A stretch of DNA of 36,121 bases from an uncultured Gammaproteobacteria bacterium (lineage in GTDB: Bacteria; Pseudomonadota; Gammaproteobacteria; Nitrosococcales; Methylophagaceae). A program made the position numbers and the translations under genes. Shown here piece after piece: positions 3,232 through 34,943 of the stretch (position 1 is the first letter of the stretch; each line of letters begins with the position of its first letter). The notes under the pieces are model-generated. The model was not told the DNA's origin. It did no database searches and was given only the letters and a program-made list of their open reading frames with translations. The stretch covers positions 1 to 36,121 of the forward strand of contig CAJQOM010000040.1 in NCBI GenBank assembly GCA_905479985.1, in the 5' to 3' direction.

Positions 3232-3606
3232 ATGAAAAAAATGACTTATATGGTAGATCCAGATATAGCATTTTGCGAACGTATTAGTTCGCTATTATCT
3301 TCTTCGTCTTTAGCAACCAAAACATTTGGTCGAGCTAAAGATTTCTTGGAGCAATCTGATTCAATGGAGCCGGATAGTCTTTTAATACTGAGTAGCAATA
3401 TTCCAGATATGGATACTGTTGAAGTGATGCAAGAACTTAAAAAAAGGGGCAACGATATTCCAGTCATCGTAGTGGGAGAAGATGATGACGTTCCACAAGC
3501 AGTAAAATTTATGCGTGCTGGGGCTGTTGACTTTATCTGGAAGCCTTTGGCTAATCAGAAATTAAAAGCATTAATTGAAAAGTTGGGTGTAAGCATAAAT
3601 AAATAG
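3232..3606 (+). CDS. Atypical stand-alone receiver (pseudo-receiver) protein
   Basis: A 124-residue protein made only of a receiver-like fold. The FMRAGAVDFIWKPLANQKL region matches FixJ-type receivers, including the one at 2370 (VLKAGAVDFIQKPYHEQNL), so common origin is clear. The phospho-acceptor position is occupied by Ser54 (LLILSSNIPDMD aligned with CLVLDVRMARMS). The acidic pocket is reduced to VDPD, while the conserved Lys (WKP) remains. It should therefore not be phosphorylated in the usual way and may act as a dominant partner or as a sensor of something else. Its stop is 14 bases before the DUF3604 start, so it probably heads that operon. Start ATG 3232 has a weak ribosome site; ATG 3241 is an alternative. 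Confidence 0.85.
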   Translation: MKKMTYMVDPDIAFCERISSLLSSSSLATKTFGRAKDFLEQSDSMEPDSLLILSSNIPDMDTVEVMQELKKRGNDIPVIVVGEDDDVPQAVKFMRAGAVDFIWKPLANQKLKALIEKLGVSINK

Positions 3607-3620
3607 GTTTGGAGGGTGAA

Positions 3621-5519
3621 ATGAAAAAAATAACAATAAATTCAGCTTTGGTTTTGAGTTTAATTGCGATCCCATGTTTTGCTCAAGATGCACCGCCGCC
3701 ATCGGACAAGAAGGTTAAATATTCTCCTTACCCAGAGAAGAACTTTCCGAATCAAGTCTATTTTGGTGATACACATTTACATACCTCATATTCTACTGAT
3801 GCAGGAATGATTGGTAATATTCGCGGCCCTGAAGATGCGTATCGTGTATCAAGAGGCGAAGTGATTACATCCAGTCATGGATTAAAGGTTAAATTGAAAC
3901 GTCCATTAGATTTTGTTGTGGTTTCGGATCATGCGGAGAACCTAGGCTTGGCACCTGCCATCGCAGAATCTAATGAAGAGCTTTTGGCGAATGAGTGGGG
4001 TAAGGCAATTTATGAAGCCGCTAATAGTGGGAAGGTGACTGATGCTTTTGACATGTGGATTAAGCAAGTTAATCTTAGTGAAGATAAGCTTAAAGATACA
4101 GGCTTTGCTAAAACATTTTGGTCGCGTGAAATAGCTGCGGCCGAAAAATATAATGAGCCTGGTCTTTTTACCGCATTTATTGGTTTTGAATGGACATCGA
4201 TGCCAGGCGGCAGAAATTTACATAGAAATGTAATCTTCCGTGACAATGGAGAAAGGGCAAGTCAAGTCGTTCCTATATCTTCTTATGACTCATTAGACCC
4301 CGAAGATTTGTGGGAATATTTAGCCGCTTACGAAAAGAAAACAGGCGGTCAAGTTATGGCTATTGCACATAATGGTAACGTCTCAAATGGGACTATGTTT
4401 GACGACATAACGTTGACGACTAAAGAACCGATTGATCGTGATTATGCTGAGCGCCGCATGATGTGGGAGCCTATTTATGAAGTGACTCAAATTAAGGGCG
4501 ATGGTGAAGCGCATCCCGCCTTATCTCCAAATGATGAATTCGCAGATTTTTACACTTGGGATACAGCGACATTAGGAGCCGATACAACCACGCCTGAAAT
4601 GTGGCCTCGTGATTACGCTAGACCCGCTTTAAAGCGAGGGTTAGTGTATGAAGAAAAATTAGGCGTCAATCCTTTTAAATTCGGAATGATTGGATCAACT
4701 GATTCACATACCTCAATACCCTCGACAGAAGAAGATAGTTTTTTTGGCAAAGTTAGCTTAGCTGAGCCTAGTGCTGATCCACATCACCGTTTTAATGAAA
4801 CAGTTCTTGGTCGAACCAATCCTGATGAAAGTAAAAAGATTTATCATTGGCAGGCAGCTGCTAGTGGCTTAGCCGCTGTGTGGTCACGTGAAAATACCCG
4901 AGAGGCGCTTTGGGATGCCATGAAGCGTAAAGAAGTTTATGCAACAACGGGAACAAGAATGAAAGTTCGTGTATTTGCCGGTTGGGATTATACGAAAGAT
5001 GATTTGGCTCGTTCTGATTTTGCTGAATATGGTTATGACCATGGTGTGCCCATGGGTGGTGATTTGAGTTCTGCTCCTAAAGACAAGGCTCCAACACTGT
5101 TGATCAGGGCGGTTAGAGATGCAGATGGGGCTAACCTTGATCGTGTTCAGGTGATAAAGGGCTGGGTCGATACAGACGGTGAGACACAAGAAAAAGTTTA
5201 CGATGTCGCCGTTTCAGATCAACGCAAGCCACTAAAAAATGGTAAGTATCCTCCTGTAGGCAATACAGTTAATTTGAAAGAAGTGACTTACACCAATGCA
5301 ATTGGGGCGCCCTTCCTTGAAGCTTTTTGGAAAGACCCGGATTTTGATCCGAAGCAGCGCGCTTTCTACTATGTGCGCGCGATTGAAATCCCAACGCCGT
5401 CATGGGTTGCATATGACTTGAAAGTGTTTGGAGGTGAAATGCCAAAGGGTGCGACAAATGAGACGCTAGTTCTTCAAGAACGCGCTTATACATCTCCTAT
5501 TTGGTATACGCCTAAATGA
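3621..5519 (+). CDS. DUF3604 PHP-like secreted protein
   Basis: A 632-residue protein with a clear Sec signal peptide (MKKITINSALVLSLIAIPCFA, cleaved before QD). It belongs to the DUF3604 family, which resembles PHP metal-dependent phosphoesterases. Visible motifs are FGDTHLHTSYSTDAG (HxH metal ligands), VVVSDHAEN, RNLHRNVIF, IAHNGN and GMIGSTDSHT. These suggest a periplasmic metal-dependent hydrolase, though no substrate is established for the family. ATG 3621 is chosen because GGAGGG sits 5 bases upstream and it starts the signal peptide. The end overlaps the PpiC gene by 4 bases (ATGA), and that gene overlaps the next in the same way, so the three are probably made in fixed proportion. DUF3604 genes are often found near sulfatases and similar catabolic genes, as here. 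Confidence 0.88.
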   Translation: MKKITINSALVLSLIAIPCFAQDAPPPSDKKVKYSPYPEKNFPNQVYFGDTHLHTSYSTDAGMIGNIRGPEDAYRVSRGEVITSSHGLKVKLKRPLDFVVVSDHAENLGLAPAIAESNEELLANEWGKAIYEAANSGKVTDAFDMWIKQVNLSEDKLKDTGFAKTFWSREIAAAEKYNEPGLFTAFIGFEWTSMPGGRNLHRNVIFRDNGERASQVVPISSYDSLDPEDLWEYLAAYEKKTGGQVMAIAHNGNVSNGTMFDDITLTTKEPIDRDYAERRMMWEPIYEVTQIKGDGEAHPALSPNDEFADFYTWDTATLGADTTTPEMWPRDYARPALKRGLVYEEKLGVNPFKFGMIGSTDSHTSIPSTEEDSFFGKVSLAEPSADPHHRFNETVLGRTNPDESKKIYHWQAAASGLAAVWSRENTREALWDAMKRKEVYATTGTRMKVRVFAGWDYTKDDLARSDFAEYGYDHGVPMGGDLSSAPKDKAPTLLIRAVRDADGANLDRVQVIKGWVDTDGETQEKVYDVAVSDQRKPLKNGKYPPVGNTVNLKEVTYTNAIGAPFLEAFWKDPDFDPKQRAFYYVRAIEIPTPSWVAYDLKVFGGEMPKGATNETLVLQERAYTSPIWYTPK

Positions 5520-6418
5520 AAAAATTATTTAAAGAACCTTTATTGGTTTTCCTGTTGCTGGGAGGCGCGATTTTCGCGCTCTACCAGCAAATACCAAACG
5601 ATTATCAGCCAGACAATGCTGAGATTATGGTAACGGAAGGCCAGATAAAAGGACTATTGGAAAGGTTTGAAAAAGTAAGGCAACGTTTGCCCTCTGAGGA
5701 AGAGGAGGATGGACTCATTCAAAACTATGTTCGTGAAGAGATTTTATACCGCGAAGCACTCGCATTAGGCTTAGATAAGGATGATGGTATTGTGCGTCGT
5801 AGACTCAATCAAAAAATGGATTTCCTATCGGAAGATCTTGCCAGTCTTGTCGAGCCGAGTGAGCAGGAATTGCAGGTTTATCTTGCAAAGCATCAAGATG
5901 ACTATCTAAAGCCTTCACGTTTTAGTTTTCGACAAATCTACTTTAATACCAGTAAACGTGGTGAGTCTGCACAATCTGCTGCGCTGTCTCTATTAGCTAA
6001 GCTCAAAGCAGAAGACACTAGTGATAATACGAGTACTGACGCAATGGGCGACCCCTTGATGGTAGCGCATCAGTTTGAGCATGAGACGGAACGGGGGATA
6101 CAGCGAGCTTTAGGTGCAGATTTTCTAAAAGCACTGGGTGAGATTGACACTAGAGGTTGGCATGGCCCCATATCTTCTGGCTTTGGATTACATTTAGTGC
6201 ATATTGATGAGCATACAGCAGGTAAAGTGTTCGAGCTTAATGAAGTGCGAGAACAAGTTATTCGTGATTGGAGTGCACAAAAGCGAGAGCAGACCAATAA
6301 AATCTTTTATCAGAACTTACGGAAGCGTTATACCGTTAAAGTAGAGAATCTTCCCAAGAAAAACTCAGCAAGTGAGAATATAACAACAAGCCTATCAATG
6401 AATGAGGCTGTAGAGTGA
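5516..6418 (+). CDS. Membrane-anchored PpiC/parvulin-type peptidyl-prolyl isomerase
   Basis: A 300-residue protein with one N-terminal membrane segment (about 8-25, LLVFLLLGGAIFALY). A charged SurA-like helical region follows (QNYVREEILYREALALGL), then a parvulin-type domain (about 125-235; FSFRQIYFNTS and GWHGPISSGFGLHLVHIDEH). It should be anchored in the inner membrane facing the periplasm, assisting folding of exported proteins. Translational coupling to DUF3604 (ATGA overlap) and to the HupE/UreJ-type gene (GTGA overlap) suggests a dedicated chaperone for one of those products. The isomerase domain is shorter and less typical than in SurA, so a purely chaperone role is possible. Confidence 0.85.
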   Translation: MKKLFKEPLLVFLLLGGAIFALYQQIPNDYQPDNAEIMVTEGQIKGLLERFEKVRQRLPSEEEEDGLIQNYVREEILYREALALGLDKDDGIVRRRLNQKMDFLSEDLASLVEPSEQELQVYLAKHQDDYLKPSRFSFRQIYFNTSKRGESAQSAALSLLAKLKAEDTSDNTSTDAMGDPLMVAHQFEHETERGIQRALGADFLKALGEIDTRGWHGPISSGFGLHLVHIDEHTAGKVFELNEVREQVIRDWSAQKREQTNKIFYQNLRKRYTVKVENLPKKNSASENITTSLSMNEAVE

Positions 6419-7422
6419 TACGCTTTTTTCCCCTTATCGTTTTGTTGTTATGTTCGGTTACGTTTGCTCATGCCGATGAGTATCGCCCAGCGTATCTTGA
6501 ATTAAAACAAACAAGTGTCGATGACTTCGATATGCTCTGGAAGGTTCCAGCTAAAGGGCAAACAAAACGTTTGAGCCTTTATGTCACTTTGCCAAATGAT
6601 GTAGTCACTACATCAGAGATGCGGGGCAATTTTGTTGGTGGTGCCTATATCGAACGATCGACTATTAAGCGGCAAGGTGGCCTTGCGGGCGCCCAAATCA
6701 GTATTAAAGGCCTTGAACGGGTATCAACAGATGTACTAGTGCGCATTCAACGACTCGATGGGACATCTGAAACGGCTCGGTTGAATTCATCATCAACGTC
6801 GTTCGTTATTAAAGGTGCGGCCCAGTTTTGGGATGTCGTAAATACCTATTTAGTCTTTGGTATTGAGCATATTCTTAATGGCTTTGATCACCTGCTGTTT
6901 GTGGCTTGTTTAATCTTCATTGCGGGCACGTGGCGACGCATTCTCATTACTGTTACAGGCTTCACTCTTGCACATTCAATCACCCTAACATTGGCAGGAT
7001 TGGAATTGATAAGGTTACCCATTCCACCAATTGAAGCAACAATAGCCTTGTCGATCGTTTTTCTTGCTAGAGAAATTGCATTAAACAGGCGCGATACGCT
7101 GACCTGGCGTTATCCGATTGCTGTTTCTGCAACTTTTGGTTTGTTGCACGGTTTTGGTTTTGCGTCAGCGCTTAGTGATATTAGCTTGCCACAAACTGAA
7201 ATACCTGCTGCCTTATTAGCATTTAATATTGGTGTGGAGCTAGGACAAGTTGCTTTTGTTGCCAGTGTGCTTTTGCTTTTCTGGTTAATAACACAAAGCT
7301 TTAAAATATTAAAAATTGAATCGGTTAATTGGCTGCAAAAAATAGAAAAACCCATGGCTTATAGCGTGGGGAGTGTGGCCATGTTATGGACGATGGAACG
7401 AGTATTTGTATTTTGGATCTAA
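6415..7422 (+). CDS. HupE/UreJ-family membrane protein
   Basis: A 335-residue protein with a signal peptide (about 1-20, ending AHA). It has a periplasmic beta-rich domain of roughly 120 residues and then about six membrane helices from residue 145 on. The motifs GIEHILNGFDHLLFV, GFTLAHSITLTLA and LLHGFGFASAL are the His-rich signatures of the HupE/UreJ_2 family, whose members are linked to nickel or cobalt transport. A metal role is therefore plausible but unproven. The GTG start is set by the 4-base overlap with the PpiC gene and by the signal peptide. Fused periplasmic domains of this sort are typical of the DUF3604-linked branch. It could supply metal to the PHP-like partner; this is inference. 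Confidence 0.82.
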   Translation: MIRFFPLIVLLLCSVTFAHADEYRPAYLELKQTSVDDFDMLWKVPAKGQTKRLSLYVTLPNDVVTTSEMRGNFVGGAYIERSTIKRQGGLAGAQISIKGLERVSTDVLVRIQRLDGTSETARLNSSSTSFVIKGAAQFWDVVNTYLVFGIEHILNGFDHLLFVACLIFIAGTWRRILITVTGFTLAHSITLTLAGLELIRLPIPPIEATIALSIVFLAREIALNRRDTLTWRYPIAVSATFGLLHGFGFASALSDISLPQTEIPAALLAFNIGVELGQVAFVASVLLLFWLITQSFKILKIESVNWLQKIEKPMAYSVGSVAMLWTMERVFVFWI

Positions 7423-7469
7423 GTAAAAAATTAGTGGTTAAGAAAAGTAACAGTTGGAGAATAATTAAA

Positions 7470-8285
7470 ATGAAAGATTCAAACATAACATCACTTATTT
7501 TAATTTCATTTCTGGCAACAGTCACGCTACCTTGCGTTACTTATGCGGAGGGTGACAAGCAGAAACAGGATAAGACTGGAACAAACCCCATTAACTTCAC
7601 AAAAGATTTTCGTATCTATAACGAATATTCATGGCTAAATACCGATGGTGATGGCAACCAGAACTTGACGACTGCAGAGTTTAGAACCCCATTTCTTGGT
7701 GGCAAATGGCAGTGGCGAATACGTGCTCGGTACAACGCAATAAATGCTGACTTGAATAATGATGGAAGTGATGACATAGACAAATCAGGTTTTGGTGATA
7801 TTGACATGAGATTTATCACAGTTCCTTATGTAAATATGGCTAAGAAACAGGCCGTTGCATTTGGGCTGGAACTGTTCCTGGATACTGCTTCAGATGATGC
7901 TTTAGGATCTGGAGCAAATTCGTTAGGCCCTCAGATATTTTATGTGAAATTTTTGCCTAATGGCCTTTTTGCTCCAGGATTACAGTACAAATTCAGTGTG
8001 GATAAAGATAAAGGACGTAGTGACGTCGACCAAGTTTTGATTGATCTCAACTATCTTCTTATGGCAGAGGATAAGAAGTCATGGTTCTTCACCGATCCAC
8101 AAATTGTCATCGATAATGAAACTGATACTGAATTTGCTGTCGTAGATTTTGAGTTTGGCTGGATGATGACTAATTGGACTGATTTGAAGGGCCATAGTTT
8201 TTACATCAGGCCAAGTGTTGGGATTGGTGTAGATCGGCCAGTCGATGGCTCCGTAGAATTTGGTTATAAAATTGTCGGTTGGTAG
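7470..8285 (+). CDS. Predicted outer-membrane beta-barrel protein (phenol_MetA_deg-like)
   Basis: A 271-residue protein with a signal peptide (MKDSNITSLILISFLATVTL...YA, cleaved near EG). Alternating hydrophobic strands follow, typical of an outer-membrane barrel (FRIYNEYSW, WQWRIRARYNA, QAVAFGLELFLD, PGLQYKFSVD, YIRPSVGIGV). The layout resembles the putative MetA-pathway family, but the match is by pattern only. Two acidic loops look calcium-binding: an EF-hand-like DGDGNQNLTTAE near residue 56 and DLNNDGSDDIDK near residue 92. ATG 7470 is chosen because it starts the signal peptide and has GGAG upstream; the frame is open further 5' into the preceding gene. The gaps to its neighbours are 47 and 34 bases, so it belongs to the same operon. 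Confidence 0.72.
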   Translation: MKDSNITSLILISFLATVTLPCVTYAEGDKQKQDKTGTNPINFTKDFRIYNEYSWLNTDGDGNQNLTTAEFRTPFLGGKWQWRIRARYNAINADLNNDGSDDIDKSGFGDIDMRFITVPYVNMAKKQAVAFGLELFLDTASDDALGSGANSLGPQIFYVKFLPNGLFAPGLQYKFSVDKDKGRSDVDQVLIDLNYLLMAEDKKSWFFTDPQIVIDNETDTEFAVVDFEFGWMMTNWTDLKGHSFYIRPSVGIGVDRPVDGSVEFGYKIVGW

Positions 8286-8319
8286 GTTGAAAAGTATTTT
8301 TTATTTTCGAGGTGAATAG

Positions 8320-9633
8320 ATGAAACGAGTAATAACACTATTTTGCACATTGGTTTTATTGATCTTAAACACAGTGTCGGCTAATGATGGTTCGACTCAA
8401 ATAGGTGTTTATGACTATCCGATTGATAATCCTTTAGCTGCAACCGTTATCGGTACGCCAAAGGAGCAAGTCGCTTCACTTCCCAAAGATATTCCACGAC
8501 AGGCTATGAAATTAGTTGTATTTCCTGATCGAGAAATAAAGAAGTTTATTCCTAATAAGGCATTGAACTACACTTTAGTCGGGCAAAAAAAAGCAGCACC
8601 TTTAATTTTTTCGATAGCAGGGACTGGAGCTAGTCACAAAAGTGCCAAGATGAGATTGTTGGAGAAAGCCTTTTTTCAAGCAGGGTTTCATGTAGTCTCG
8701 TTACCTTCGCCAACTTATGCTAATTTCATTGTGACAGCGTCAACAACACAGGTACCAGGCCATATTGTTCAAGATAGCGCAGACATATATCGTGTTATGG
8801 CGCTGATTAAAGAACAGATTAAGGATAGGGTGCAAATAACGGATTATAATCTTGTAGGGTACAGTTTAGGCGGTGCTCAAGCAGCCTTTGTGGCTAAACT
8901 TGATGAAGAACAAGGAGCGTTTGATTTTAAAAAAGCATTGATGATTAATCCCCCTGTGAATTTATTTAATTCTGTTTCCATTTTGGATCGAATGTTGGAA
9001 GAAAATATTCCGGGAGGGTTGAATAATTTCAATGCTTTTTTTGACGAGATGATGGTTGAGTTTAGTCATCATTATAGCGAATCTGAAAACGTTGATTTCA
9101 ATGATGATTTTCTTTATAGAATCTATGAAAATAAACAACAAGAGGTTGATTTATCTAGGGTAGCAGCTACCGTTGGCATGTCATTTCGAATTTCATCATC
9201 CAACATGATATTTACCTCTGATGTCATGACAAATGGTGGTTATATACTGCCCAAAAATCATGAGTTAGGGAAGATAGAGTCGACGACTAATTACTTCAAA
9301 GTGTCGAGTCGAGTTAGCTTTACTGACTATTATAATGAGCGCTTTTTGCCATTCTTTATGGCCCGAAATCAGGGTATGACAAGTGACAAACTGCTCGATG
9401 ATCTAAGTTTGAAGAGTATTGCTGGTTATCTACGGACTAGCGATAAAATTGCGGTCGTCCACAATGAGGACGATGTTATTTTAGCCCCAGGAGAAATCGA
9501 CTTTTTCCGCGAGGTATTCCAGTCGCGAGCACATATCTATCCTAAGGGTGGGCACTGCGGCAATATGGCGTATAAAGACAATATCACCTATATGGTTAAT
9601 CACTTTGAAAAACAAGGAGTTAATCATGAGTAA
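8320..9633 (+). CDS. Exported alpha/beta-hydrolase family serine hydrolase
   Basis: A 437-residue protein with a signal peptide (about 1-21, NTVSA before ND). It has an alpha/beta-hydrolase fold: the nucleophile elbow GYSLGG with Ser182, a probable catalytic Asp384 or Asp385 in HNEDDVI, and His412 in KGGHCGN. An oxyanion-type segment, FSIAGTG, precedes them. It should act in the periplasm or at the cell surface as an esterase or lipase; the substrate is unknown. The MlaA gene overlaps its 3' end by 8 bases, a pairing that points to lipid work. The mature N terminus (NDGSTQIGVY) resembles that of the barrel protein at 10471 (EDSSTQVGAY). Confidence 0.85.
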   Translation: MKRVITLFCTLVLLILNTVSANDGSTQIGVYDYPIDNPLAATVIGTPKEQVASLPKDIPRQAMKLVVFPDREIKKFIPNKALNYTLVGQKKAAPLIFSIAGTGASHKSAKMRLLEKAFFQAGFHVVSLPSPTYANFIVTASTTQVPGHIVQDSADIYRVMALIKEQIKDRVQITDYNLVGYSLGGAQAAFVAKLDEEQGAFDFKKALMINPPVNLFNSVSILDRMLEENIPGGLNNFNAFFDEMMVEFSHHYSESENVDFNDDFLYRIYENKQQEVDLSRVAATVGMSFRISSSNMIFTSDVMTNGGYILPKNHELGKIESTTNYFKVSSRVSFTDYYNERFLPFFMARNQGMTSDKLLDDLSLKSIAGYLRTSDKIAVVHNEDDVILAPGEIDFFREVFQSRAHIYPKGGHCGNMAYKDNITYMVNHFEKQGVNHE

Positions 9634-10396: not shown

Positions 10397-10470
10397 TGTT
10401 TCTGGTCAAGAAACAGTGACGGAATATTAAAGATAAGCCCGAAGAAAAATAGGTTATAGGAGAGTTATAG

Positions 10471-11223
10471 ATGACACGTTTAGTTGATGTACTACTAATA
10501 AGCCTTCTGGTGCCCACATCAGTATTTGCTGAAGATAGTTCAACGCAAGTTGGTGCTTATGTTTTTGCTAGTGATATTAGTGGTGAAACAAAAATAGGTA
10601 ATATCGAATCAGATGTCGATGTGCCTTTCGATGATGTTCTCGAAAACCTAGATATGGGTTTGATGGCTTTTATAGATCATCGACGAGGTAAATGGTCTTT
10701 TATAGCAGATGTGTTTTATTCCGATATTTCTGCAGGTAATACCAAAACGGTAGCGCCTAGTGTAGCGGTGAAAGTGGATGTTGGCGTTAAACAATTATTA
10801 GCCGAGGGATTTATTGGTTATAGGGTATTTGAGCAAGATTATCGAAATGCACAGTTCGGTATAGATTTTTTAGTTGGAGCACGCTACAACAAGGTAGAGC
10901 TTGACTTTGAAGCAAAAGCAACACTGTTGGGGTTAACCTTTTCTGGGTCCAGAACGCCAGATGAAGATTGGGTCGACGGTGTTATTGCTCTTAGGGCGCA
11001 ATATGGACAGGATAGTGGTTGGGGCGCGAGCGCTTGGGCTGACATAGGCGAAGGTTCAGACAGTGACTCTTATCAATTGATAGGTAAAGTGAATTATAAG
11101 TTCGACAATAAAGTGAATCTTTTTGGTGGCTATCGACACTATAGTTTTGAGCATGATTATTCAGGTGTTGAGCTTGATCTTGAGTACTCGGGACCGGTAA
11201 TAGGTGTCTCTTACGGGTTTTAA
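10471..11223 (+). CDS. OmpW-like outer-membrane beta-barrel protein
   Basis: A 250-residue protein with a signal peptide (MTRLVDVLLISLLVPTSVFA, cleaved before ED). About eight amphipathic strands follow (LMAFIDHRRGKWSFIADVFY, LLAEGFIGYRVFE, QFGIDFLVGARY, VNLFGGYRHYSF). It ends in GVSYGF with a C-terminal Phe, as expected for a Bam-assembled outer-membrane protein. It belongs to the small OmpW/OmpA-type barrel class; the transported solute is unknown. An AGGAG ribosome site lies about 10 bases before the ATG. It probably ends the run that starts at 3232, with a 74-base gap before it. Confidence 0.8.
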   Translation: MTRLVDVLLISLLVPTSVFAEDSSTQVGAYVFASDISGETKIGNIESDVDVPFDDVLENLDMGLMAFIDHRRGKWSFIADVFYSDISAGNTKTVAPSVAVKVDVGVKQLLAEGFIGYRVFEQDYRNAQFGIDFLVGARYNKVELDFEAKATLLGLTFSGSRTPDEDWVDGVIALRAQYGQDSGWGASAWADIGEGSDSDSYQLIGKVNYKFDNKVNLFGGYRHYSFEHDYSGVELDLEYSGPVIGVSYGF

Positions 11224-11365
11224 TTCTAGAAAGATAACGCTACATCCCTATATGGGAGAGAAGGGCCGGAAATGCAAATAAAAATAAAAACGAACACTGA
11301 TTAAAACGAAAATATAACTTCGGGAAAGAGACTGAATTTTATAGAATTTACATGAGGAGATTACA

Positions 11366-13756
11366 ATGAAGTACATACCAATTTTTGTTTTGCCATCATT
11401 ATTGCTTTCATTTAATAATGTGTCGGCCTCACATGGTGAACTTGCTACTCCCCCGGCGGGCGCTGAGTTTGCTATTTCCAGTTCTGGTGTCAAGACTAAA
11501 GCTGTAGAAGGCTTTGGCGGCGTTATCGCGAAAAAATATAGCGATTCCAAGGAGTGGTGGGCTGATGAAAATCGACCTAAAGAAGATTCGCCCAATGTGA
11601 TCATCTTTTTATTAGATGATGTTGGTTTTGCTCAGGTGGGTAGCTTTGGCGGACTGATTAAAACGCCCAATATCGATAAGTTGGCGGCCAATGGCTTGCG
11701 CTTTAACAACTTTCATACTACGGCATTGTGCTCACCTTCTCGTGCAAGTCTGATGGCTGGGCGAAATCCCCATGCGATTGGCTTGGGTAGCCATGCTCTG
11801 ACGGCAATGGGTTTTCCTGGTTATAACGCTGTTATGCCGGAATCGGCTAAATCAGTAGCTAATTACCTTCAAGAAGCAGGCTATATTAATTATGCCTTGG
11901 GTAAGTGGGATCACACACCACTTTATGAGGTGTCACAAGTGGGACCATTTGATAGGTGGCCGAGTGGTGAGGGATTTCAACATGCATATACTTTTATGGC
12001 AGCAGACGTACACCAATTTGTACCTGTGATGTGGAATGATCATAGTCCTGAGGAGTATCGTAAATCAGAACATTTGGATAAAGATCTTGCTGATCGGGCC
12101 ATTAATTGGATTACTGGCCATAAATCGATTAAGCCTGATTTACCCTTTATGATGCTATGGGCCTCAGGTTCTATGCACTCACCACATCATGCGCCTGATA
12201 GCCATATAGATAGGTATAAAGGTCAATTTGATATGGGGTGGGATAAGGCGCGTGAAATTATTTTGCAACAGCAGATAGCCAAAGGCGTCGTCCCAGCGGG
12301 AACAAAATTAACAGAACGTATTGACCAGATACCAGCATGGGATTCGCTATCAGATCAGGAGAAAGGGCTTTATGCTCGTCAGATGGAAGTCTTTGCAGCA
12401 CAAATGGAATGGGTTGATTTGCAAATTGGTCGCGTAGTCGATGAATTGACGCGTATTGGTGAGTTAGATAATACCCTTATTTTTGTAACCGCAGATAATG
12501 GGGCAAGTGGTGAAGGTGGCCTCGCAGGGACCTTTAATGAAACTTATGTTCTAAATGGTTTGCAGACATCGCTTGAGGCGAATTTGAAGCATCAAGAGGA
12601 TTGGGGCCGCGAAAATACCTATCCGCATTATCATGCCGGTTGGGCGATGGCAGGTAACACACCATTCCGTTATTTCAAACAAAGTGAGCATCGTGGTGGG
12701 CAGGCTGATCACTTAGTTGTACATTGGCCTGATGGTATTCAAACTAAAGGAGAAGTTCGAAGTCAATATCATCATATCTCCGACGTTGCACCTACGATTA
12801 TGGAAGCTGCAGGGATTACAGTGCCCGCGGAATATAACGGTGTGGAGCAGCAGCCGATGGATGGTACTTCAATGATATATGCATTCAACCAGGCCGATGC
12901 GCCTAACCAGAAAGAACGCCAATATTATGAAATGTTTGGTAATCGTGCAATATGGGTTGATGGCTGGAAAGCAGTGTCATTACATGCTAATCGCATGCCG
13001 TGGGATGTGAATGTTGTTTTGCCCTTTGATCAAGATAAATGGGAGTTGTATCACGTTGCGGAAGATTTTTCTGAGAGTAATGACCTTGCTGAAAAATATC
13101 CAGAGAAGTTAAAAGAGTTGGTTGCGATATTTGATGAAGAAGCTTGGAAATATAATGTTTATCCGCTTTACGATGACATGATAAAACGACTTGGTGCTCA
13201 ACAAGACCGCCTCTTTGGTGACCAAAAAGAGTTTATTTATTATGCACCGGGTGCAGTTCGAATTGCAGAAAAATCATCAGCACCGGTCAAAAATCGTGCA
13301 CATACTATCGAAACCCAAATCGACCTCAACGGTGAAGAGGAAGGTGTTATTGTTGCTGTGGGAGGTATGACAGGCGGCTATACCATGTTTATCAAGGATA
13401 ACCACTTGTATTATGACTATAACTTCCTTGATGGTGTTCATTATATTTTGAAATCATCACCGTTACCTAAGGGTAAGACTGATTTGAAGTTTAGTTTTAC
13501 TAGAACCAAAGCTTTCGGTGGCGAAGGTGAACTTTATATCAACGGTCAAAAACAAGATGAAGTTGAGATGCCGCAAATGCATGTCAGTACTTATTCATTG
13601 GCAGAAACATTTGATGTTGGTATGGATACGGGGACTCAGGTTTCTGATGTCTATACGGGTGTAAATAAATTTACTGGCACGTTAGATCGGATTATCTTTA
13701 CAGTGTCCGATACCAACACCGTACCTCCACGTGCTTTACCAGCAATGTATCACTAA
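11366..13756 (+). CDS. Type I arylsulfatase, exported
   Basis: A 796-residue sulfatase with a signal peptide (about 1-22, ending VSA). The formylglycine signature CSPSR has Cys122, inside TALCSPSRASLMAGR. Metal ligands are Asp84 and Asp85 (LLDDVGF), Asp377 and Asn378 (TADNGASGEGG), with Lys438 in FRYFKQSEHRGG. In GKWDH (Lys180 to His183) the position usually held by catalytic His (GKWH) is Asp182, an unusual feature. The protein has a C-terminal beta-sandwich, and its length fits large bacterial arylsulfatases. It cleaves sulfate esters after maturation by a formylglycine-generating enzyme, which the next gene encodes. GAGGAG lies 8 bases before the ATG. Confidence 0.93.
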   Translation: MKYIPIFVLPSLLLSFNNVSASHGELATPPAGAEFAISSSGVKTKAVEGFGGVIAKKYSDSKEWWADENRPKEDSPNVIIFLLDDVGFAQVGSFGGLIKTPNIDKLAANGLRFNNFHTTALCSPSRASLMAGRNPHAIGLGSHALTAMGFPGYNAVMPESAKSVANYLQEAGYINYALGKWDHTPLYEVSQVGPFDRWPSGEGFQHAYTFMAADVHQFVPVMWNDHSPEEYRKSEHLDKDLADRAINWITGHKSIKPDLPFMMLWASGSMHSPHHAPDSHIDRYKGQFDMGWDKAREIILQQQIAKGVVPAGTKLTERIDQIPAWDSLSDQEKGLYARQMEVFAAQMEWVDLQIGRVVDELTRIGELDNTLIFVTADNGASGEGGLAGTFNETYVLNGLQTSLEANLKHQEDWGRENTYPHYHAGWAMAGNTPFRYFKQSEHRGGQADHLVVHWPDGIQTKGEVRSQYHHISDVAPTIMEAAGITVPAEYNGVEQQPMDGTSMIYAFNQADAPNQKERQYYEMFGNRAIWVDGWKAVSLHANRMPWDVNVVLPFDQDKWELYHVAEDFSESNDLAEKYPEKLKELVAIFDEEAWKYNVYPLYDDMIKRLGAQQDRLFGDQKEFIYYAPGAVRIAEKSSAPVKNRAHTIETQIDLNGEEEGVIVAVGGMTGGYTMFIKDNHLYYDYNFLDGVHYILKSSPLPKGKTDLKFSFTRTKAFGGEGELYINGQKQDEVEMPQMHVSTYSLAETFDVGMDTGTQVSDVYTGVNKFTGTLDRIIFTVSDTNTVPPRALPAMYH

Positions 13757-13775
13757 GGATAGAATGAGTGAATGG

Positions 13776-13803
13776 GAATGGCTTACTTCTTTGTAAGCCA
13801 TTC
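13776..13803 (+). terminator. Hairpin between sulfatase and its maturase
   Basis: A perfect 11-bp stem (GAATGGCTTAC and GTAAGCCATTC) with a six-base loop lies 20 bases after the sulfatase stop. The T-tract after it is poor (TCAGCTC), so it may act as a partial attenuator or mRNA-stabilising stem that sets the sulfatase/FGE ratio rather than a full terminator. Confidence 0.6.
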
Positions 13804-13820
13804 TCAGCTCTAGATAAAGA

Positions 13821-14870
13821 ATGATAATGAAAAATCATATTTTGTTAATACTTGCAGTGGTACTTATTGCTTTAGCTATGTTGGTTATGATGGATCGAAC
13901 AACACGGACTATCACGAGTACTTCAAAAACTAGTTTTCAATGTACAACACCAGAAGAAAGTGAAGTTTGGATTGAGGGTGGAATATTTACCATGGGTAGC
14001 GATGATAGTTATCGTGAAGAAATGCCTGCGCATAGTGTGAAACTCGATGGCTATTGGATGGATACGCATGAGGTTTCTAATGTTCAATTTGCTCAATTTG
14101 TGAAAGAAACAGGGTATATCACTGTGGCTGAAAGGATGCCAGATCCTAAGGAGTTTGTAGGTGTACCACCAGAGATGATGAAGCCAGGTTCAGTTTTATT
14201 CACGCCACCAGGTAAAGGTGAGCGAATGACTAGTTGGTGGACATATGTGCCTGGTGTTAATTGGAAGCATCCGGAAGGCCTTACTAGTTCGATTGAAAAC
14301 AAACCCGACTTTCCTGTCGTTCACATTGCTTTTGAGGATGCTCAGGCCTACGCCGATTGGGCAGGGCGTTCATTGCCTACGGAAGCGCAGTACGAGTTCG
14401 CTGCAAGAAGTAAAAAAGAAAAAGAGCGCTATGCTTGGGGGGGGGCAGAACTAGCTCCTAATAATCAATACAAAGCTAATACCTGGCAAGGCTTATTCCC
14501 GATACAAAACACCAAAGAAGATGGCTATGAAGGTATAGCACCTGTTGCGTGTTATGAAGCTAATGACTATGGCGTTTATGATTTAATTGGAAATGTTTGG
14601 GAGTGGACAGGAGACTGGTATGCGCCTCGACATGATCCAAAGGACAATGTTAATCCTCAAGGCGTATCGCAAGACAAAAGTTATGATAAAAATAATGTGG
14701 GTTATCCAGTGAGAACGATTAAAGGGGGGTCCTATTTATGTGCACCAAATTATTGTAAGCGTTATCGTCCGGCGGCTCGCCATGCTCAGGACACGGGATT
14801 AGGAACAGGCCATATTGGGTTCAGGACGGTTTTAAACACAAAGAAAGCGATACCGGTTTTCAGCAGATAA
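13821..14870 (+). CDS. Formylglycine-generating enzyme (SUMF1 family), membrane-anchored
   Basis: A 349-residue FGE-sulfatase family protein. After one N-terminal membrane segment (about 5-24) the domain begins at VWIEGGIFTMGSD. It ends with the active-site block GGSYLCAPNYCKRYRPAAR and GHIGFRTV. Cys307 and Cys312 match the two catalytic cysteines of true FGEs, which SUMF1-like proteins of other functions lack. It oxidises the CxPxR cysteine of a sulfatase to formylglycine; the obvious client is the upstream gene. Other motifs seen are YWMDTHEVSNVQFAQFV, WAGRSLPTEAQYEFAAR and DLIGNVWEWTGDWY. A membrane-anchored, probably periplasmic FGE implies that maturation may happen during or after export. 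Two start codons, 13821 and 13827, are equally possible. Confidence 0.92.
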   Translation: MIMKNHILLILAVVLIALAMLVMMDRTTRTITSTSKTSFQCTTPEESEVWIEGGIFTMGSDDSYREEMPAHSVKLDGYWMDTHEVSNVQFAQFVKETGYITVAERMPDPKEFVGVPPEMMKPGSVLFTPPGKGERMTSWWTYVPGVNWKHPEGLTSSIENKPDFPVVHIAFEDAQAYADWAGRSLPTEAQYEFAARSKKEKERYAWGGAELAPNNQYKANTWQGLFPIQNTKEDGYEGIAPVACYEANDYGVYDLIGNVWEWTGDWYAPRHDPKDNVNPQGVSQDKSYDKNNVGYPVRTIKGGSYLCAPNYCKRYRPAARHAQDTGLGTGHIGFRTVLNTKKAIPVFSR

Positions 14871-15017
14871 CTTACCGGTGATGCTCAATATTAACCCAAG
14901 TGATTTTAGTATTGATGACCTGAAGTAGGAGTTGGATGTTGGAAATAAGTTATTGCTATTTTTTGTAAAGGAAACACTATGAATTTACCGAAATCTACCA
15001 AATTTGAGGATTCGAAA

Positions 15018-15236
15018 ATGAAGATGAAACTGTGTCTCTGTGTCGTTGCCATAACAATTCTGATCACCGGCTGCGGAAGCGGCGAACGCAAGGCCAACAA
15101 ATCTATCGCTAAGGTCAACAACGAGCGGCTCTCATTGATTGAGGACTACCAGAAGTGTGTCAAGAAAGCTGGTGATGACGAGGTGAAGGCAGAGGCCTGT
15201 GAGACGTACCGAAAGTCAGCGGAAGCACTGCAGTGA
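15018..15236 (+). CDS. Small lipoprotein of unknown function, GC-rich
   Basis: A 72-residue protein: lipoprotein signal MKMKLCLCVVAITILITGC with lipobox ITGC (Cys19), then a short charged helical region (KSIAKVNNERLSLIEDYQKC) containing two further cysteines (YQKC and EACETY). ATG 15018 gives a compact lipoprotein signal and has GAGG upstream. ATG 14979, with AAAGGA, would add 13 residues including acidic ones and is less signal-like. The body is visibly richer in G+C than its neighbours, which hints at separate acquisition. No family is recognised. Confidence 0.6.
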   Translation: MKMKLCLCVVAITILITGCGSGERKANKSIAKVNNERLSLIEDYQKCVKKAGDDEVKAEACETYRKSAEALQ

Positions 15237-15420: not shown

Positions 15421-15450
15421 AGAGTATTTCATGAACTGGAAAGTATTTGG

Positions 15451-17013
15451 ATGAGCATGTTGTATCGACTTTTTATGTGCATATTGTTGGGGCCTACTGT
15501 CCTGTTTATACAAGGATGCTCTACGCTTCAAGTAGAAAAAGAGCGTGAAATTTCTTTGGCATTTTCGGACTCTATACAAACGTCTCTTGGAAAAGTATTT
15601 GAGACTGCGGATTCAGTAGAGTCAGGGTTTATAGTTTTAAATACGGGTCATGATGCCTTTCTAAAACGCACAGCATTAATTGATGCCGCAGAACAAGCTA
15701 TTGATTTGCAATATTACATTTGGAATAGTGATAAGTCGGGACGATTACTAGCCCAACGAGTCATGATCGCTGCTGACCGAGGTGTACATGTTCGGCTCTT
15801 ACTAGATGACTTTAATATTGGCGGTCGTGATGACTTATTACTTGTTATGGATGCCCATCCCAATATAGAAATCCGTGTTTACAACCCAAATGCAGCTAGA
15901 AGTGGCATGGTGCGAAAAATGTTGGGTGGGCTCGGTGATTTTGGACGGATTAATCAACGAATGCATAATAAGTCATTTATAGTTGATGGCAGTGTTGCTA
16001 TTGTCGGAGGACGAAATATTGGTGATGAATACTTTGACTTGAATCATGAGTTGAATTTCCGCGATAGAGATTTGCTAACCGCTGGTCCCATTGTTGCTGA
16101 TATTGCTGAAAGCTTTGATGTTTATTGGAACCATGAACGTGCTTTTTCGATAGCTACTCTAGTTGGCGTTACTGCGGAAAGTGCTGAAGTTAAGAGTTTT
16201 AGAAAAGAGATTGATAGGAAAGTACAACAGGATAAGCTCCATTTTATGGACAAGACAGCGGCTTTTTCATCTGGGGCTGCTTTTAATACTTGGTTGAGTA
16301 GTATGATTTGGGCACCGGCAGAGCTGGTTTATGATCAGGCCTTGGCGATTGATGACACTAGCCACAATAAGAGAAAAAGAGTTGCCAACACATTACGAGA
16401 TATAGCAAAAGAGACAACCGCTGAAGTTCTTATTGAGTCAGCATACCTAGTACCTGGAGATGAGGGTGTCGCTTTACTAAAAGAACTCACAAATAGAGGG
16501 GTAAGTGTAAAGGCGTTGACAAATTCACTGGCTTCGAACGACTTAACAACCAACCATGCTGGTTATGCGCGTCGACGTATAGCGTTGCTTGAAAATGGTG
16601 CTGAATTGTTTGAGCTTAGACCAGATGCAAAATCTTGTCAGTCTTTGGTTGTGGGCAATGCCCGTTGTAGTGAAAGTATATTGTTTGGCTTGCATGCCAA
16701 ATCAATAGTATTCGATCGAAAGGCGGTATTTGTAGGATCGTTTAACCTTAATCAGCGTTCTATCTATCTCAATAGTGAATTGGCATTGATAGTTTACAGT
16801 CCTGAATTAGCAGCAATAATTGCAGGCGATATTGAACAAAACTTATTATCAGAAAATAGTTGGCAGGTACGGCTTGATGATAGCCATTCCTTAGAATGGA
16901 AGGGGAGTGTTGATGGCAAAGCAGTGCATTATGATCATGAGCCTGAAACAGGGTTCTGGCGTCGCTTTAATGCGAGTTTTTTTTCCATATTTCCAATTGA
17001 GAAGTATTTGTAA
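15451..17013 (+). CDS. Phospholipase D-like lipoprotein (two HKD motifs)
   Basis: A 520-residue lipoprotein (lipobox IQGC, Cys23) of the PLD superfamily. The first HKD motif is HNKSFIVDGSVAIVGGRN (His172, Lys174, Asp179). The second is HAKSIVFDRKAVFVGSFNLN (His415, Lys417, Asp422). The architecture is that of cardiolipin-synthase/ClsC-like or phosphodiesterase-type PLD proteins found as envelope lipoproteins in gammaproteobacteria. It may hydrolyse or transfer phosphatidyl groups at the periplasmic face; the exact reaction cannot be told. Start ATG 15451 has little ribosome site, while ATG 15457 is placed after GGATGAG and is an alternative. The next gene is 151 bases away. Confidence 0.88.
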   Translation: MSMLYRLFMCILLGPTVLFIQGCSTLQVEKEREISLAFSDSIQTSLGKVFETADSVESGFIVLNTGHDAFLKRTALIDAAEQAIDLQYYIWNSDKSGRLLAQRVMIAADRGVHVRLLLDDFNIGGRDDLLLVMDAHPNIEIRVYNPNAARSGMVRKMLGGLGDFGRINQRMHNKSFIVDGSVAIVGGRNIGDEYFDLNHELNFRDRDLLTAGPIVADIAESFDVYWNHERAFSIATLVGVTAESAEVKSFRKEIDRKVQQDKLHFMDKTAAFSSGAAFNTWLSSMIWAPAELVYDQALAIDDTSHNKRKRVANTLRDIAKETTAEVLIESAYLVPGDEGVALLKELTNRGVSVKALTNSLASNDLTTNHAGYARRRIALLENGAELFELRPDAKSCQSLVVGNARCSESILFGLHAKSIVFDRKAVFVGSFNLNQRSIYLNSELALIVYSPELAAIIAGDIEQNLLSENSWQVRLDDSHSLEWKGSVDGKAVHYDHEPETGFWRRFNASFFSIFPIEKYL

Positions 17014-17121
17014 TGCTGAGACGTGAAGTGTTGATGTTTACACTATACTTAACGTATGAAATAAGAGGGTGTTTCAGGTGCAGATAATCTAGTACATTAA
17101 ATTAAAGCTAAGATTTTTAAG

Positions 17122-17135
17122 AGGCTAGAAAGCCT
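17122..17135 (+). terminator. Weak hairpin after the PLD gene
   Basis: AGGCT-AGAA-AGCCT is a 5-bp stem with a four-base loop, followed by GAATTTTATTATTT. It may terminate or pause transcription upstream of the DUF3313 gene. The stem is short, so support is weak. Confidence 0.3.
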
Positions 17136-17164
17136 GAATTTTATTATTTAAAAGGAATGAGTAT

Positions 17165-17833
17165 ATGAAGCTATGTAAACTGAGAAACGTTATTTTAATA
17201 GTCGGCCTATCTTTTTTAGGTATTCAATCTACTTGGGCTGACAGCAAAGTACCGCAAAGTGGTTTTATTGATGCTGAAGTAGCGTTGACACCTATTCCTG
17301 ATAAAGCTGGCGCCTATCGTTATTTGAAGCCAGAATTAGGTTTAAAAAAATATAATTATATTATGATTGAGCCGATTGAGGTTTGGCTTCACCCTGACTC
17401 TGAATATAAGGGGATTCAACCAGATACCTTAAAAGCGCTGGCTGATGGTTTTACTCAAGCGCTGGTCGATGAATTAGAACCAGACTACACAGTAGTAGGA
17501 AATGCCGGTCCTGAGACATTGGTTATTAGGCTGGCTATTACGGGTTTGAAAACGAAAAAGGAAAGGCGCAGGTTGATAGGGTATTTACCTGTAGTCTTTG
17601 TTTTGAGCGCCCTTAATACTGATGCCTTGAAACGGGTATCGCTTATTGATGCGGGTATTGAAGCAGAGGTGGTGGATTCAGTTTCTGGAGAGACCTTAGC
17701 GGTACTTGTCGATTCCGGAGTCATAGCGCCGGGTTCAGAGAGTGAAAACGGTCAGTTATCTTGGAAAGATATTGAAATGAGTTTACGGTTCTATGCCAAA
17801 CGATTTAAAGCTCAGCTCGATGCGAGCAAATAA
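17165..17833 (+). CDS. DUF3313-like exported protein
   Basis: A 222-residue protein with a signal peptide (about 1-25, STWA before DS). The body has the look of the DUF3313 family of periplasmic or lipoprotein-type envelope proteins: YNYIMIEPIEVWLHPDS, LADGFTQALVDEL, then SLIDAGIEAEVVDSVSGETLAVLVDS. That family has no assigned function. AAAAGGA lies about 8 bases before the ATG. It is followed after 48 bases by the patatin gene and may be cotranscribed. No lipobox cysteine is present, so the protein is probably soluble and periplasmic. Confidence 0.75.
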   Translation: MKLCKLRNVILIVGLSFLGIQSTWADSKVPQSGFIDAEVALTPIPDKAGAYRYLKPELGLKKYNYIMIEPIEVWLHPDSEYKGIQPDTLKALADGFTQALVDELEPDYTVVGNAGPETLVIRLAITGLKTKKERRRLIGYLPVVFVLSALNTDALKRVSLIDAGIEAEVVDSVSGETLAVLVDSGVIAPGSESENGQLSWKDIEMSLRFYAKRFKAQLDASK

Positions 17834-17881
17834 AATTTGCTTCTTTCAAGATATGCTTGCTAGTAGCAACAGAGTTATTTC

Positions 17882-20089
17882 ATGATAAAGCTGGTTTTAT
17901 TGTTGTTTGTTGTTACTTCAGCAGCCATTACTTCTTTGGAGGTAATGGCTGCTGAAGTAAAAAAACAACGGCCTAAGATTGGTTTAGCACTCAGTGGTGG
18001 TGGTGCACGTGGCGCGGCACACATCGGTGTAATCAAGGTGCTGGAAGAACATGGTATTCCTATTGATTATATTGCCGGAACGAGTATGGGGGCAGTCATC
18101 GGTGGGCTCTATGCTTCTGGTATGTCTAGCGATGAAGTTGAAAAGCAGTTAGCCACAATAGACTGGAATGACGTTTTTAGTGATAAGCCATTAAGACCTG
18201 ATCGATCACAGCGGCGTAAAGATGACGATATCCTTTATTTAGTCAAAGGTAAAGTCGGCATTACGGACTCTGCTGTAACGCTACCGACAGCAGTGGTGCA
18301 AGGCCAGAAATTTGATCTGATTCTAAAAGCATTGACTTTACCAGTATCAAATATTAACGATTTTGACTTATTACCGACGCCATATCGTGCTGTGGCGATG
18401 GATATCACAACAGGTGAAGAAGTCGTGCTTAATAGCGGTGACCTATCGATTGCGATGCATGCCAGTATGGCTATTCCAGGTGCGTTTGCCCCAGTAAAGC
18501 TGGGCGGTAAATTATTAGTAGACGGCGGTGCAGCAAATAATCTACCTATTTCTGTTGTGAGAGAAATGGGTGCAGATATTGTTATTGCCATAGACATCAG
18601 TACACCGTTACTGAAACAGGAGGAGCTTGGAGGCGCTCTAGCCGTCATTGATCAATTAACGGGAATATTAACTCGCCGTAATACTGAAGCACAGATCAAG
18701 ACCCTTTTGGAGAGTGATATTTTAATCATCCCTAACTTGGGTAATATTGCGACAATGGATTTTGGGAAAGTAGAGGAAGCTGTTGAGGTAGGCCGTTTAT
18801 CCGGGAAAGAGAGGGCGCAGCAGCTTACATCGTTATCACTCAATGAACGGGCCTATCAAGCGTATCGAACTACAAGGGCAAGAAGTGAAAGTCATTCAAA
18901 TATTATTGAGTTTGTACATTTCGAAAATGACTCATCATTAAGTGAGCAGGTATTAAAAGAACATTTGGCTATAGAGCCTGGGCAAGCGTTTGACTTAGAT
19001 AAGGTCGAAAAGGGTGTCGCTAATATCTATGGGCTAGATATTTTCGAATCTGTTCGTTACGACATTGCTGAAAAAGACGGTATGACAGGACTTGCTGTCT
19101 ATGCGAAACAAAAATCGTGGGGAACCAGTTCATTACAAACTGGACTAGAATTGAGCAGTGACTTTACGGGTCAATCTTCATTTAATCTTGGGTTTGCCGT
19201 CACAAAGCAACCTTTTAATGACCTTAATGGTGAGTGGAGAACAGCCATACAAATAGGTGAAGAACCGGCAATAGTTACAGAGGTATACCAACCATTAGAT
19301 CCAGCAGCAAAATATTTCGCTGCTGCCGGACTGTCTTGGGATAACAGAGATATAAGGTTGTTTAGTGATTCGAGTGGCCGTGCGGATACAGAATATGAAG
19401 TTGCTCGTTGGGGACTACGTTTTGCAGTAGGCCGAAATATTGGTAAGTGGGGTGAAGTTCGGATTGGACTTCGCCGATTTACTGGCAATGCAAATTTATC
19501 AGTAGGTGACCCCTCATTTAGGAGTTTTGACTTTGATGACGGACATGTTTTTGCCAGAGCAAAAGTAGATACACTGGATAATTTGAATTTTCCAAGGCAT
19601 GGGAATTTGAGTAGTGTTGAGTGGACGGCAGGCCTTGAAGACATAGGAGCAGAGAATGACTATGACCAAATATTATTGCGGTTGGCAGGTGCAAGAAGTT
19701 GGGCGGAAGGGACATTAATTACAAGTTTAAAATTTGGTAGTACAGTCGGCGGAGATGCCTCGATTAATAACCGTTACCGCTTAGGTGGCTTCATGAACCT
19801 TTCAGGGTTGGAACAAAATCAGTTGTCGGGTCAGCACACAGGTTTAATGACTATTGCGTATCAATATCGTGTTTATCGCAGTCAACTTTTCCCTTTCTAT
19901 GCGGGCAGCGCCTTGCAGCTAGGTAATACATGGGAAGAACGCAGTGATATTAGCTTGGAGAATACACTTGCCAGCGCCACTTTGTTTTTAGGCGCTGATA
20001 CACCGATAGGGCCATTTTATCTGGGTTATGGTTATACAGAAGGTGGCAATGATGCCGTTTATTTGTTTTTGGGTCAGCCATTCTTTTAA
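17882..20089 (+). CDS. Patatin-like phospholipase, PlpD-type (type Vd) autotransporter
   Basis: A 735-residue protein in the type Vd order. First comes a signal peptide (about 1-23, VMA-AE). A patatin domain (about 32-230) has oxyanion motif SGGGARGAA, nucleophile Ser68 in GTSMG and Asp214 in VDGGAANN. One POTRA domain (about 335-395) follows, then a C-terminal 16-strand-type barrel ending in GQPFF. It should insert in the outer membrane and present a phospholipase A1-like domain outside or at the surface. Catalytic residues are intact. A perfect 19-bp inverted repeat lies within the signal-peptide codons (17913-17960). It is a third lipid-active enzyme in this module, besides the hydrolase and PLD. 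Confidence 0.93.
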   Translation: MIKLVLLLFVVTSAAITSLEVMAAEVKKQRPKIGLALSGGGARGAAHIGVIKVLEEHGIPIDYIAGTSMGAVIGGLYASGMSSDEVEKQLATIDWNDVFSDKPLRPDRSQRRKDDDILYLVKGKVGITDSAVTLPTAVVQGQKFDLILKALTLPVSNINDFDLLPTPYRAVAMDITTGEEVVLNSGDLSIAMHASMAIPGAFAPVKLGGKLLVDGGAANNLPISVVREMGADIVIAIDISTPLLKQEELGGALAVIDQLTGILTRRNTEAQIKTLLESDILIIPNLGNIATMDFGKVEEAVEVGRLSGKERAQQLTSLSLNERAYQAYRTTRARSESHSNIIEFVHFENDSSLSEQVLKEHLAIEPGQAFDLDKVEKGVANIYGLDIFESVRYDIAEKDGMTGLAVYAKQKSWGTSSLQTGLELSSDFTGQSSFNLGFAVTKQPFNDLNGEWRTAIQIGEEPAIVTEVYQPLDPAAKYFAAAGLSWDNRDIRLFSDSSGRADTEYEVARWGLRFAVGRNIGKWGEVRIGLRRFTGNANLSVGDPSFRSFDFDDGHVFARAKVDTLDNLNFPRHGNLSSVEWTAGLEDIGAENDYDQILLRLAGARSWAEGTLITSLKFGSTVGGDASINNRYRLGGFMNLSGLEQNQLSGQHTGLMTIAYQYRVYRSQLFPFYAGSALQLGNTWEERSDISLENTLASATLFLGADTPIGPFYLGYGYTEGGNDAVYLFLGQPFF
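17913..17960 (+). promoter_or_regulatory. Perfect 19-bp inverted repeat inside the patatin signal-peptide codons
   Basis: Bases 17913-17931 pair perfectly with 17942-17960 around a 10-base loop (TTCTTTGGAG). The stem starts 32 bases after the start codon and encodes VTSAAI and VMAAEV. A hairpin this long should form in the mRNA and could slow or time translation at the secretion signal. The loop side carries GGAGG followed closely by an in-frame ATG (17945), a possible but poorly spaced internal start. Confidence 0.7.
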
Positions 20090-34937: not shown

Positions 34938-34943
34938 TAATGT

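What the first reader, a model, noticed from the sequence alone, without database searches (positions are those of the whole stretch)
3232..20089. Exported ester-hydrolysis system: sulfatase + maturase, serine hydrolase, PLD, patatin autotransporter, MlaA and barrels
Almost every product has a signal peptide, lipobox or membrane anchor. Three different lipid/ester hydrolases, an arylsulfatase with an adjacent FGE, an orphan MlaA, outer-membrane barrels and a PHP-like DUF3604 protein sit together behind a sensor kinase. No cytoplasmic catabolic genes are present. The set reads like a surface or periplasmic system for a sulfated or amphipathic ester, or for outer-membrane lipid remodelling. I know of no described pathway with this set.
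Basis: partly seen in the sequence, partly recalled or inferred. Interest (0 to 1): 0.75.

Follow-up and report, generated by a model that had tools for sequence, protein, structure and literature searches.

The report
Outer-membrane lipid clean-up gene cluster
The stretch is a mosaic of separate gene sets whose core is a known kind of lipid-removal pair (a MlaA-like protein that lifts stray phospholipids out of the outer membrane and an enzyme that cuts them), here next to two further phospholipase-type genes; the sulfatase and the other neighbours look like unrelated additions.

Summary
The genes are as described, but they are not one pathway. Comparison shows four modules. (A) The serine hydrolase and the "orphan MlaA" (8320-10396) are homologues of Pseudomonas aeruginosa MlaY-MlaZ, which is proposed to extract and degrade mislocalised phospholipids: 41% and 54% identity, an MlaA gene directly downstream in 55 of 55 loci from several phyla, and a MlaZ clade separate from canonical MlaA with 100/98 support. 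(B) PLD lipoprotein, DUF3313, PlpD-type patatin-barrel, SpoIIAA-like and a small lipoprotein form an operon-like set conserved, in whole or part, in six relatives. (C) DUF3604-PPIC-HupE is an independent set found in other Gammaproteobacteria. (D) Sulfatase plus FGE: the sulfatase occurs in the genus only here. A and B genes are linked in several other genomes; C and D are not. Best reading: an outer-membrane phospholipid turnover locus (MlaYZ plus PlpD-like and PLD enzymes) with sulfatase and DUF3604 cargo alongside. The sulfated-substrate idea is not supported; the outer-membrane lipid alternative is, for the core. MlaYZ itself is known; new here are its wide range and its linkage to PLD/PlpD genes.

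The parts
8320..9633 (+). MlaY homologue: exported alpha/beta-hydrolase, predicted periplasmic lipase; triad S182, D385, H412
   Evidence: S182 and H412 invariant, D385 at least 90% conserved in 49 sequences; AF2 model pLDDT 90 with alpha/beta-hydrolase fold; 41% identity to P. aeruginosa MlaY over 404 aa
9626..10396 (+). MlaZ homologue: MlaA-family lipoprotein paired with MlaY (listed ORF starts at 9548; 9626 ATG preferred)
   Evidence: Pfam MlaA E 1e-67; 54% to P. aeruginosa MlaZ; in the MlaZ clade, 100/98 support, with PFEYE motif
10471..11223 (+). outer-membrane barrel (BAR2), possibly associated with MlaYZ
   Evidence: weak OMP_b-brl match, TIGR04219 below cut-off; also beside MlaYZ in L038 at about 50%
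15451..17013 (+). PLD-superfamily lipoprotein with two HKD motifs (module B)
   Evidence: Pfam PLDc_2 E 2e-35; next to DUF3313/patatin in relatives
17165..17833 (+). DUF3313 exported protein (module B)
   Evidence: Pfam E 3e-32; same place in L105, L107, L108, L110, L111, L112
17882..20089 (+). PlpD-type patatin + POTRA + barrel, type Vd secretion architecture (module B)
   Evidence: Pfam Patatin and POTRA, BamA-like barrel; best solved relative PlpD, E 2.8e-83; conserved in module B
20150..20503 (+). SpoIIAA-like protein (module B)
   Evidence: Pfam E 7e-18; follows the patatin in L105, L107, L110, L111
20533..20943 (+). small lipoprotein (LP136, module B)
   Evidence: conserved position in L105, L106, L107, L108, L110
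20985..21572 (-). 17 kDa-antigen-like protein closing module B
   Evidence: Pfam E 8e-9; similar minus-strand gene in L105, L107, L110
3609..7422 (+). module C: DUF3604 - PPIC - HupE/UreJ, separate from MlaYZ
7467..8285 (+). probable outer-membrane barrel (BAR1), no known family
   Evidence: signal peptide and barrel-like sequence by eye; no Pfam hit up to E 5
11366..14870 (+). module D: arylsulfatase (CSPSR motif) and anchored formylglycine-generating enzyme
   Evidence: Pfam; closest solved arylsulfatase 1hdh; FGE keeps both catalytic Cys of 1y1e; sulfatase absent from other same-genus genomes searched
14979..15236 (+). 85-aa lipoprotein ORF, function unknown
   Evidence: ORF with lipobox LITGC
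404..3606 (+). PAS histidine kinase, LuxR-type response regulator, second response regulator; link to the cluster not shown
   Evidence: Pfam; weak, non-specific HK/RR matches only near MlaYZ elsewhere

Best explanation
The functional core is an outer-membrane phospholipid surveillance and turnover locus. MlaZ (9626-10396), an MlaA-family lipoprotein, takes glycerophospholipids that have strayed into the outer leaflet and hands them to the exported lipase MlaY (8320-9633), which deacylates them in the periplasm (inferred from the P. aeruginosa pair; not shown here). The neighbouring module B adds a PlpD-type patatin phospholipase A and a periplasm-facing PLD lipoprotein that could act on the same lipids or their head groups (inferred). 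The sulfatase+FGE and DUF3604-PPIC-HupE sets are independent cargo that came to lie in the same run of genes.
For: MlaA directly downstream of the hydrolase in 55/55 loci from Gamma-, Alphaproteobacteria, Desulfobacterota, Nitrospirota and Fusobacteriota. Homology to the P. aeruginosa pair: 41% and 54% in a record with acetate symporter, DUF485 and glycine-betaine-binding genes upstream, which from my own knowledge is the PA3234-PA3239 order. MlaZ clade 100/98, PFEYE motif 24/26 against 0/19 canonical. Function of MlaYZ from papers. Triad and fold. Canonical MlaA separately present and no PldA found in the genome. Module B conserved in G011, G015, G027, G028, G032, G033. A-B links: window, L034 (PLD-DUF3313-MlaYZ), L038 (patatin fragment-barrel-MlaYZ-SpoIIAA-LP136), L044, and patatin near MlaYZ in L055 and L079.
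Against: No assay. In an even sample of 369 Gammaproteobacteria only 4 genomes hold both MlaY and a PlpD-like protein, and only this one has them linked, so the A-B link is uncommon; co-occurrence beyond this genome is not significant (p 0.09). In G015 A and B are on different contigs. PLD substrate is unknown. Presence of MlaBCDEF in this genome was not tested.
Confidence: 0.72

Rival explanations
1. One dedicated system that cleans or feeds on a sulfated amphiphile: sulfatase removes sulfate, hydrolases cut esters, MlaA and barrels move the product.
For: The run 3232-14870 is co-directional with short gaps or overlaps, so co-transcription of sulfatase with MlaYZ is plausible; FGE and sulfatase look catalytically intact.
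Against: Sulfatase absent from the same-genus genomes searched, including those with MlaYZ or module B; not linked to MlaYZ in 55 loci except one partial distant match on the other strand in L073; Nitrosococcus-like G062 has both MlaYZ and four sulfatases but hundreds of kb apart.
Confidence: 0.1
2. Only the gene pairs/modules are functional units and their closeness is accidental: MlaYZ, module B, module C and module D are four independent sets, with no cooperation between MlaYZ and module B.
For: Module B occurs without MlaYZ (G011, G027, G033) and MlaYZ without B (Nitrosococcus-like genomes, Stutzerimonas); linkage is rare in the class sample.
Against: A-B links recur in different gene orders (L034, L038, L044, L055, L079). 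Expected number of PlpD-like genes in the 823 kb of MlaYZ loci at the class background density is about 0.03, observed 3 (the density in other phyla is unknown).
Confidence: 0.35
3. MlaYZ-patatin-PLD scavenges phospholipids from outside (prey, oil-associated vesicles) as nutrient rather than policing its own membrane.
For: PlpD-type proteins are described as type Vd secreted patatins (own knowledge); nearest MlaYZ relatives include MAGs from diesel or hydrocarbon settings (Porticoccus, Cycloclasticus).
Against: No uptake or fatty-acid catabolic genes in the cluster; MlaYZ in P. aeruginosa is described for own-membrane lipid.
Confidence: 0.12

Closest known systems
MlaY-MlaZ (PA3238-PA3239) of Pseudomonas aeruginosa
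   Same: Adjacent lipase and MlaA-family genes, same order, 41% and 54% identity, same catalytic residues, MlaZ clade in the tree
   Different: Window MlaZ has a lipobox cysteine (LTAC), P. aeruginosa MlaZ has none by sequence; here the pair is in a run with PLD, patatin, barrels, sulfatase
Canonical MlaA of the Mla pathway
   Same: MlaA Pfam family; 43% to the copy at C29 of this genome
   Different: Separate clade, lacks the PFEYE C-terminal motif, not paired with a hydrolase
PlpD (type Vd patatin) of Pseudomonas aeruginosa
   Same: Patatin domain E 2.8e-83 to PlpD structure 5fqu, POTRA and C-terminal barrel
   Different: Lies in a PLD-DUF3313-SpoIIAA-lipoprotein set
Pseudomonas arylsulfatase PAS and formylglycine-generating enzyme
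   Same: Sulfatase E 2e-63 to 1hdh, CSPSR motif; FGE with both catalytic cysteines
   Different: Sulfatase has about 200 extra C-terminal residues, FGE has an N-terminal membrane anchor

Membership tests
MlaY-MlaZ | alpha/beta-hydrolase gene directly followed by an MlaA-family gene | tested here: met
   window, and 55/55 homologous loci
MlaY-MlaZ | sequence homology of both partners to the P. aeruginosa pair | tested here: met
   41% over 404 aa, 54% over 201 aa; identification of the P. aeruginosa pair as PA3238-PA3239 rests on neighbour genes and own knowledge
MlaY-MlaZ | MlaZ distinct from the canonical MlaA present in the same genome | tested here: met
MlaY-MlaZ | serine-hydrolase triad in an exported protein | tested here: met
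   S182, D385, H412, signal peptide by eye
MlaY-MlaZ | phospholipid extraction and degradation in cells | not testable with these tools
   needs biochemistry or genetics
PlpD / type Vd patatin | signal peptide, patatin with GxSxG and catalytic Asp, POTRA, C-terminal barrel | tested here: met
   Patatin and POTRA, BamA-like barrel match, PlpD best structure, GTSMG motif in the sequence
Formylglycine-generating enzyme | two catalytic cysteines in the GGSY.C....C motif | tested here: met
   alignment to 1y1e
FGly sulfatase | C-x-P-x-R maturation motif and Sulfatase domain | tested here: met
   CSPSR, PF00884 E 2e-52
Sulfated-ester utilisation locus | sulfatase co-conserved with the other genes in relatives | tested here: not met
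Complete Mla pathway | MlaBCDEF in the genome | not tested

The most novel reading that the evidence does not exclude
MlaYZ, a PlpD-type patatin and a PLD lipoprotein form one multi-enzyme phospholipid-disposal pathway of the outer membrane, in which MlaZ extracts lipid, MlaY and the patatin deacylate, and PLD removes the head group; the pathway is widespread beyond Pseudomonas and exchanged between lineages.
Probability: 0.3. Interest if true: 0.65.

Novelty: new variant of a known kind. Interest (0 to 1): 0.42.

Why it matters
MlaYZ is so far described, in the papers found, in Pseudomonas. Here it is a constant gene pair across several phyla with a diagnostic MlaZ motif, so it can be annotated on sight instead of as 'orphan MlaA plus hydrolase'. 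Its recurrent linkage to PlpD-like and PLD genes gives a concrete, testable hypothesis for the unknown role of type Vd patatins and periplasmic PLD lipoproteins in outer-membrane lipid homeostasis.

Tried and rejected
Sequence search of the PDB with MlaY found nothing; a first AF2 model on 7 sequences was poor (pLDDT 53) and was replaced by one on 49 sequences. Fold comparison gives only generic alpha/beta hydrolases (Z about 20); PlaF, a membrane phospholipase A, is among Foldseek's top matches, which is suggestive only. Literature searches with 'MlaA' plus orphan/paralog/patatin terms gave nothing useful; 'MlaA hydrolase' led to MlaYZ. DUF3604 occurs in one paper of the library. Promoter and terminator scans gave no more sites than shuffled sequence, so operon borders could not be set. 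I considered that the whole run is one sulfated-ester system and dropped it because the sulfatase and DUF3604 sets are not co-conserved. I considered lateral transfer of MlaYZ: window MlaY is 72% to a Porticoccus MAG but only 53% to same-genus G015, which favours transfer, but MAG binning errors cannot be excluded.

Full report
What is there. The window is one whole contig (C40) of a 2.2 Mb, 99.85% complete genome. Loci found with the same MlaYZ genes from close relatives carry the labels Piscirickettsiaceae / Methylophagaceae and Cycloclasticus, so the organism is probably a gammaproteobacterium of that circle (inference).

Module A, MlaYZ. The hydrolase at 8320-9633 is found in 7 of 114 relatives searched, and an MlaA-family gene lies beside it in every one. 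A scan of one genome per species found 55 loci from Gamma- and Alphaproteobacteria, Desulfobacterota, Nitrospirota and the fusobacterium Propionigenium; in all 55 an MlaA gene follows directly on the same strand. Ser182 and His412 are invariant and Asp385 is at least 90% conserved in 49 sequences. A model at pLDDT 90 shows an alpha/beta hydrolase with a large helical insert at about 215-361.

Identity of module A. Papers describe in P. aeruginosa PA3239 (MlaZ, an MlaA homologue) passing mislocalised phospholipids to PA3238 (MlaY, a lipase), in a species said to lack PldA. A P. aeruginosa record holds the pair beside a glycine-betaine-binding protein, DUF485 and an acetate symporter. Window MlaY is 41% and window MlaZ 54% identical to it; window MlaZ is only 43% identical to the canonical MlaA of its own genome. 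A tree of 45 sequences puts all MlaZ, with P. aeruginosa MlaZ and the window copy, on one side of a branch with 100/98 support; the C-terminal PFEYE motif is in 24 of 26 MlaZ and 0 of 19 canonical MlaA. The genome shows no PldA match, as expected if MlaYZ stands in for it.

Module B. PLD lipoprotein, often a glycine-zipper protein, DUF3313, PlpD-type patatin-POTRA-barrel, SpoIIAA-like protein and a small lipoprotein form a set seen complete in G011 and G027 and in part in G015, G028, G032 and G033. The patatin's best solved relative is PlpD. A and B genes are linked in the window; in L034 (PLD-glycine zipper-DUF3313-MlaY-MlaZ); in L038 (patatin fragment, barrel, MlaY-MlaZ, SpoIIAA, LP136); more loosely in L044 (DUF3313, SpoIIAA); and a PlpD-like patatin lies near MlaYZ in a Nitrospirae MAG (L055) and a Desulfobacula MAG (L079). 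At the density of PlpD-like genes seen in 369 Gammaproteobacteria, 0.03 would be expected in the 823 kb of MlaYZ loci and 3 were seen; with a fivefold density and only two hits p is 0.012. Against this, in the class sample itself only this genome has the two linked, and co-occurrence without it is not significant. One paper names PlpD as another possible degrader of mislocalised phospholipid.

Modules C and D. DUF3604-PPIC-HupE is found in the same set in other Gammaproteobacteria: 9 of 19 other genomes with DUF3604 have PPIC beside it, most of those with HupE as far as the short loci reach. It is absent from the other same-genus genomes searched. The sulfatase is the only one of its kind among same-genus genomes searched; G062 of the same order has four relatives far from its MlaYZ. 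FGE and sulfatase look active.

Mechanism. Shown: gene content, pairing, homology, catalytic residues, module conservation. Inferred: phospholipid substrate, direction of transfer, location, cooperation of A and B, independence of C and D. I hold the MlaYZ assignment at about 0.9 and the wider statement (an outer-membrane phospholipid turnover locus plus unrelated cargo) at 0.72; cooperation of A with B is about even.

Verdict. The interest lies in the breadth of MlaYZ and its link with PLD and PlpD-type genes.

Noticed in passing
window 3609-7422; L116, L117, L125, L126, L134, L136, L093: DUF3604, a PPIC prolyl isomerase and a HupE/UreJ protein form a recurrent uncharacterised trio in Gammaproteobacteria; DUF3604 has no solved relative and appears in one paper of the library.
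   Followed up: partly
window 14979-15236: An 85-aa lipoprotein ORF lies in the 580-base gap between FGE and PLD.
   Followed up: no
window 21952-22968: IS30-type transposase whose C-terminus appears out of frame (by eye), a likely broken insertion sequence between module B and the cobalamin genes.
   Followed up: no
window 23598-35552: CobA-type adenosyltransferase and other genes on the minus strand, a TonB-dependent receptor on the plus strand, and two cobalamin riboswitches: an ordinary B12 locus.
   Followed up: partly
L021, L037, L042, L064, L071, L072, L085, L141: RND efflux adaptor and pump genes lie within 10 kb of MlaYZ in about ten loci, and near module B in L105, L108 and L111.
   Followed up: no
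window 9626-10396; L074, L140: MlaZ of Pseudomonas and Moraxellaceae lacks the lipobox cysteine that most other MlaZ proteins have, so lipidation is not constant in the family.
   Followed up: partly
L035, L036, L037, L038 against G015: Window MlaY is closer to Porticoccus, Nitrincolaceae and Cycloclasticus MAGs (62-72%) than to same-genus G015 (53%), which suggests transfer between marine lineages.
   Followed up: partly
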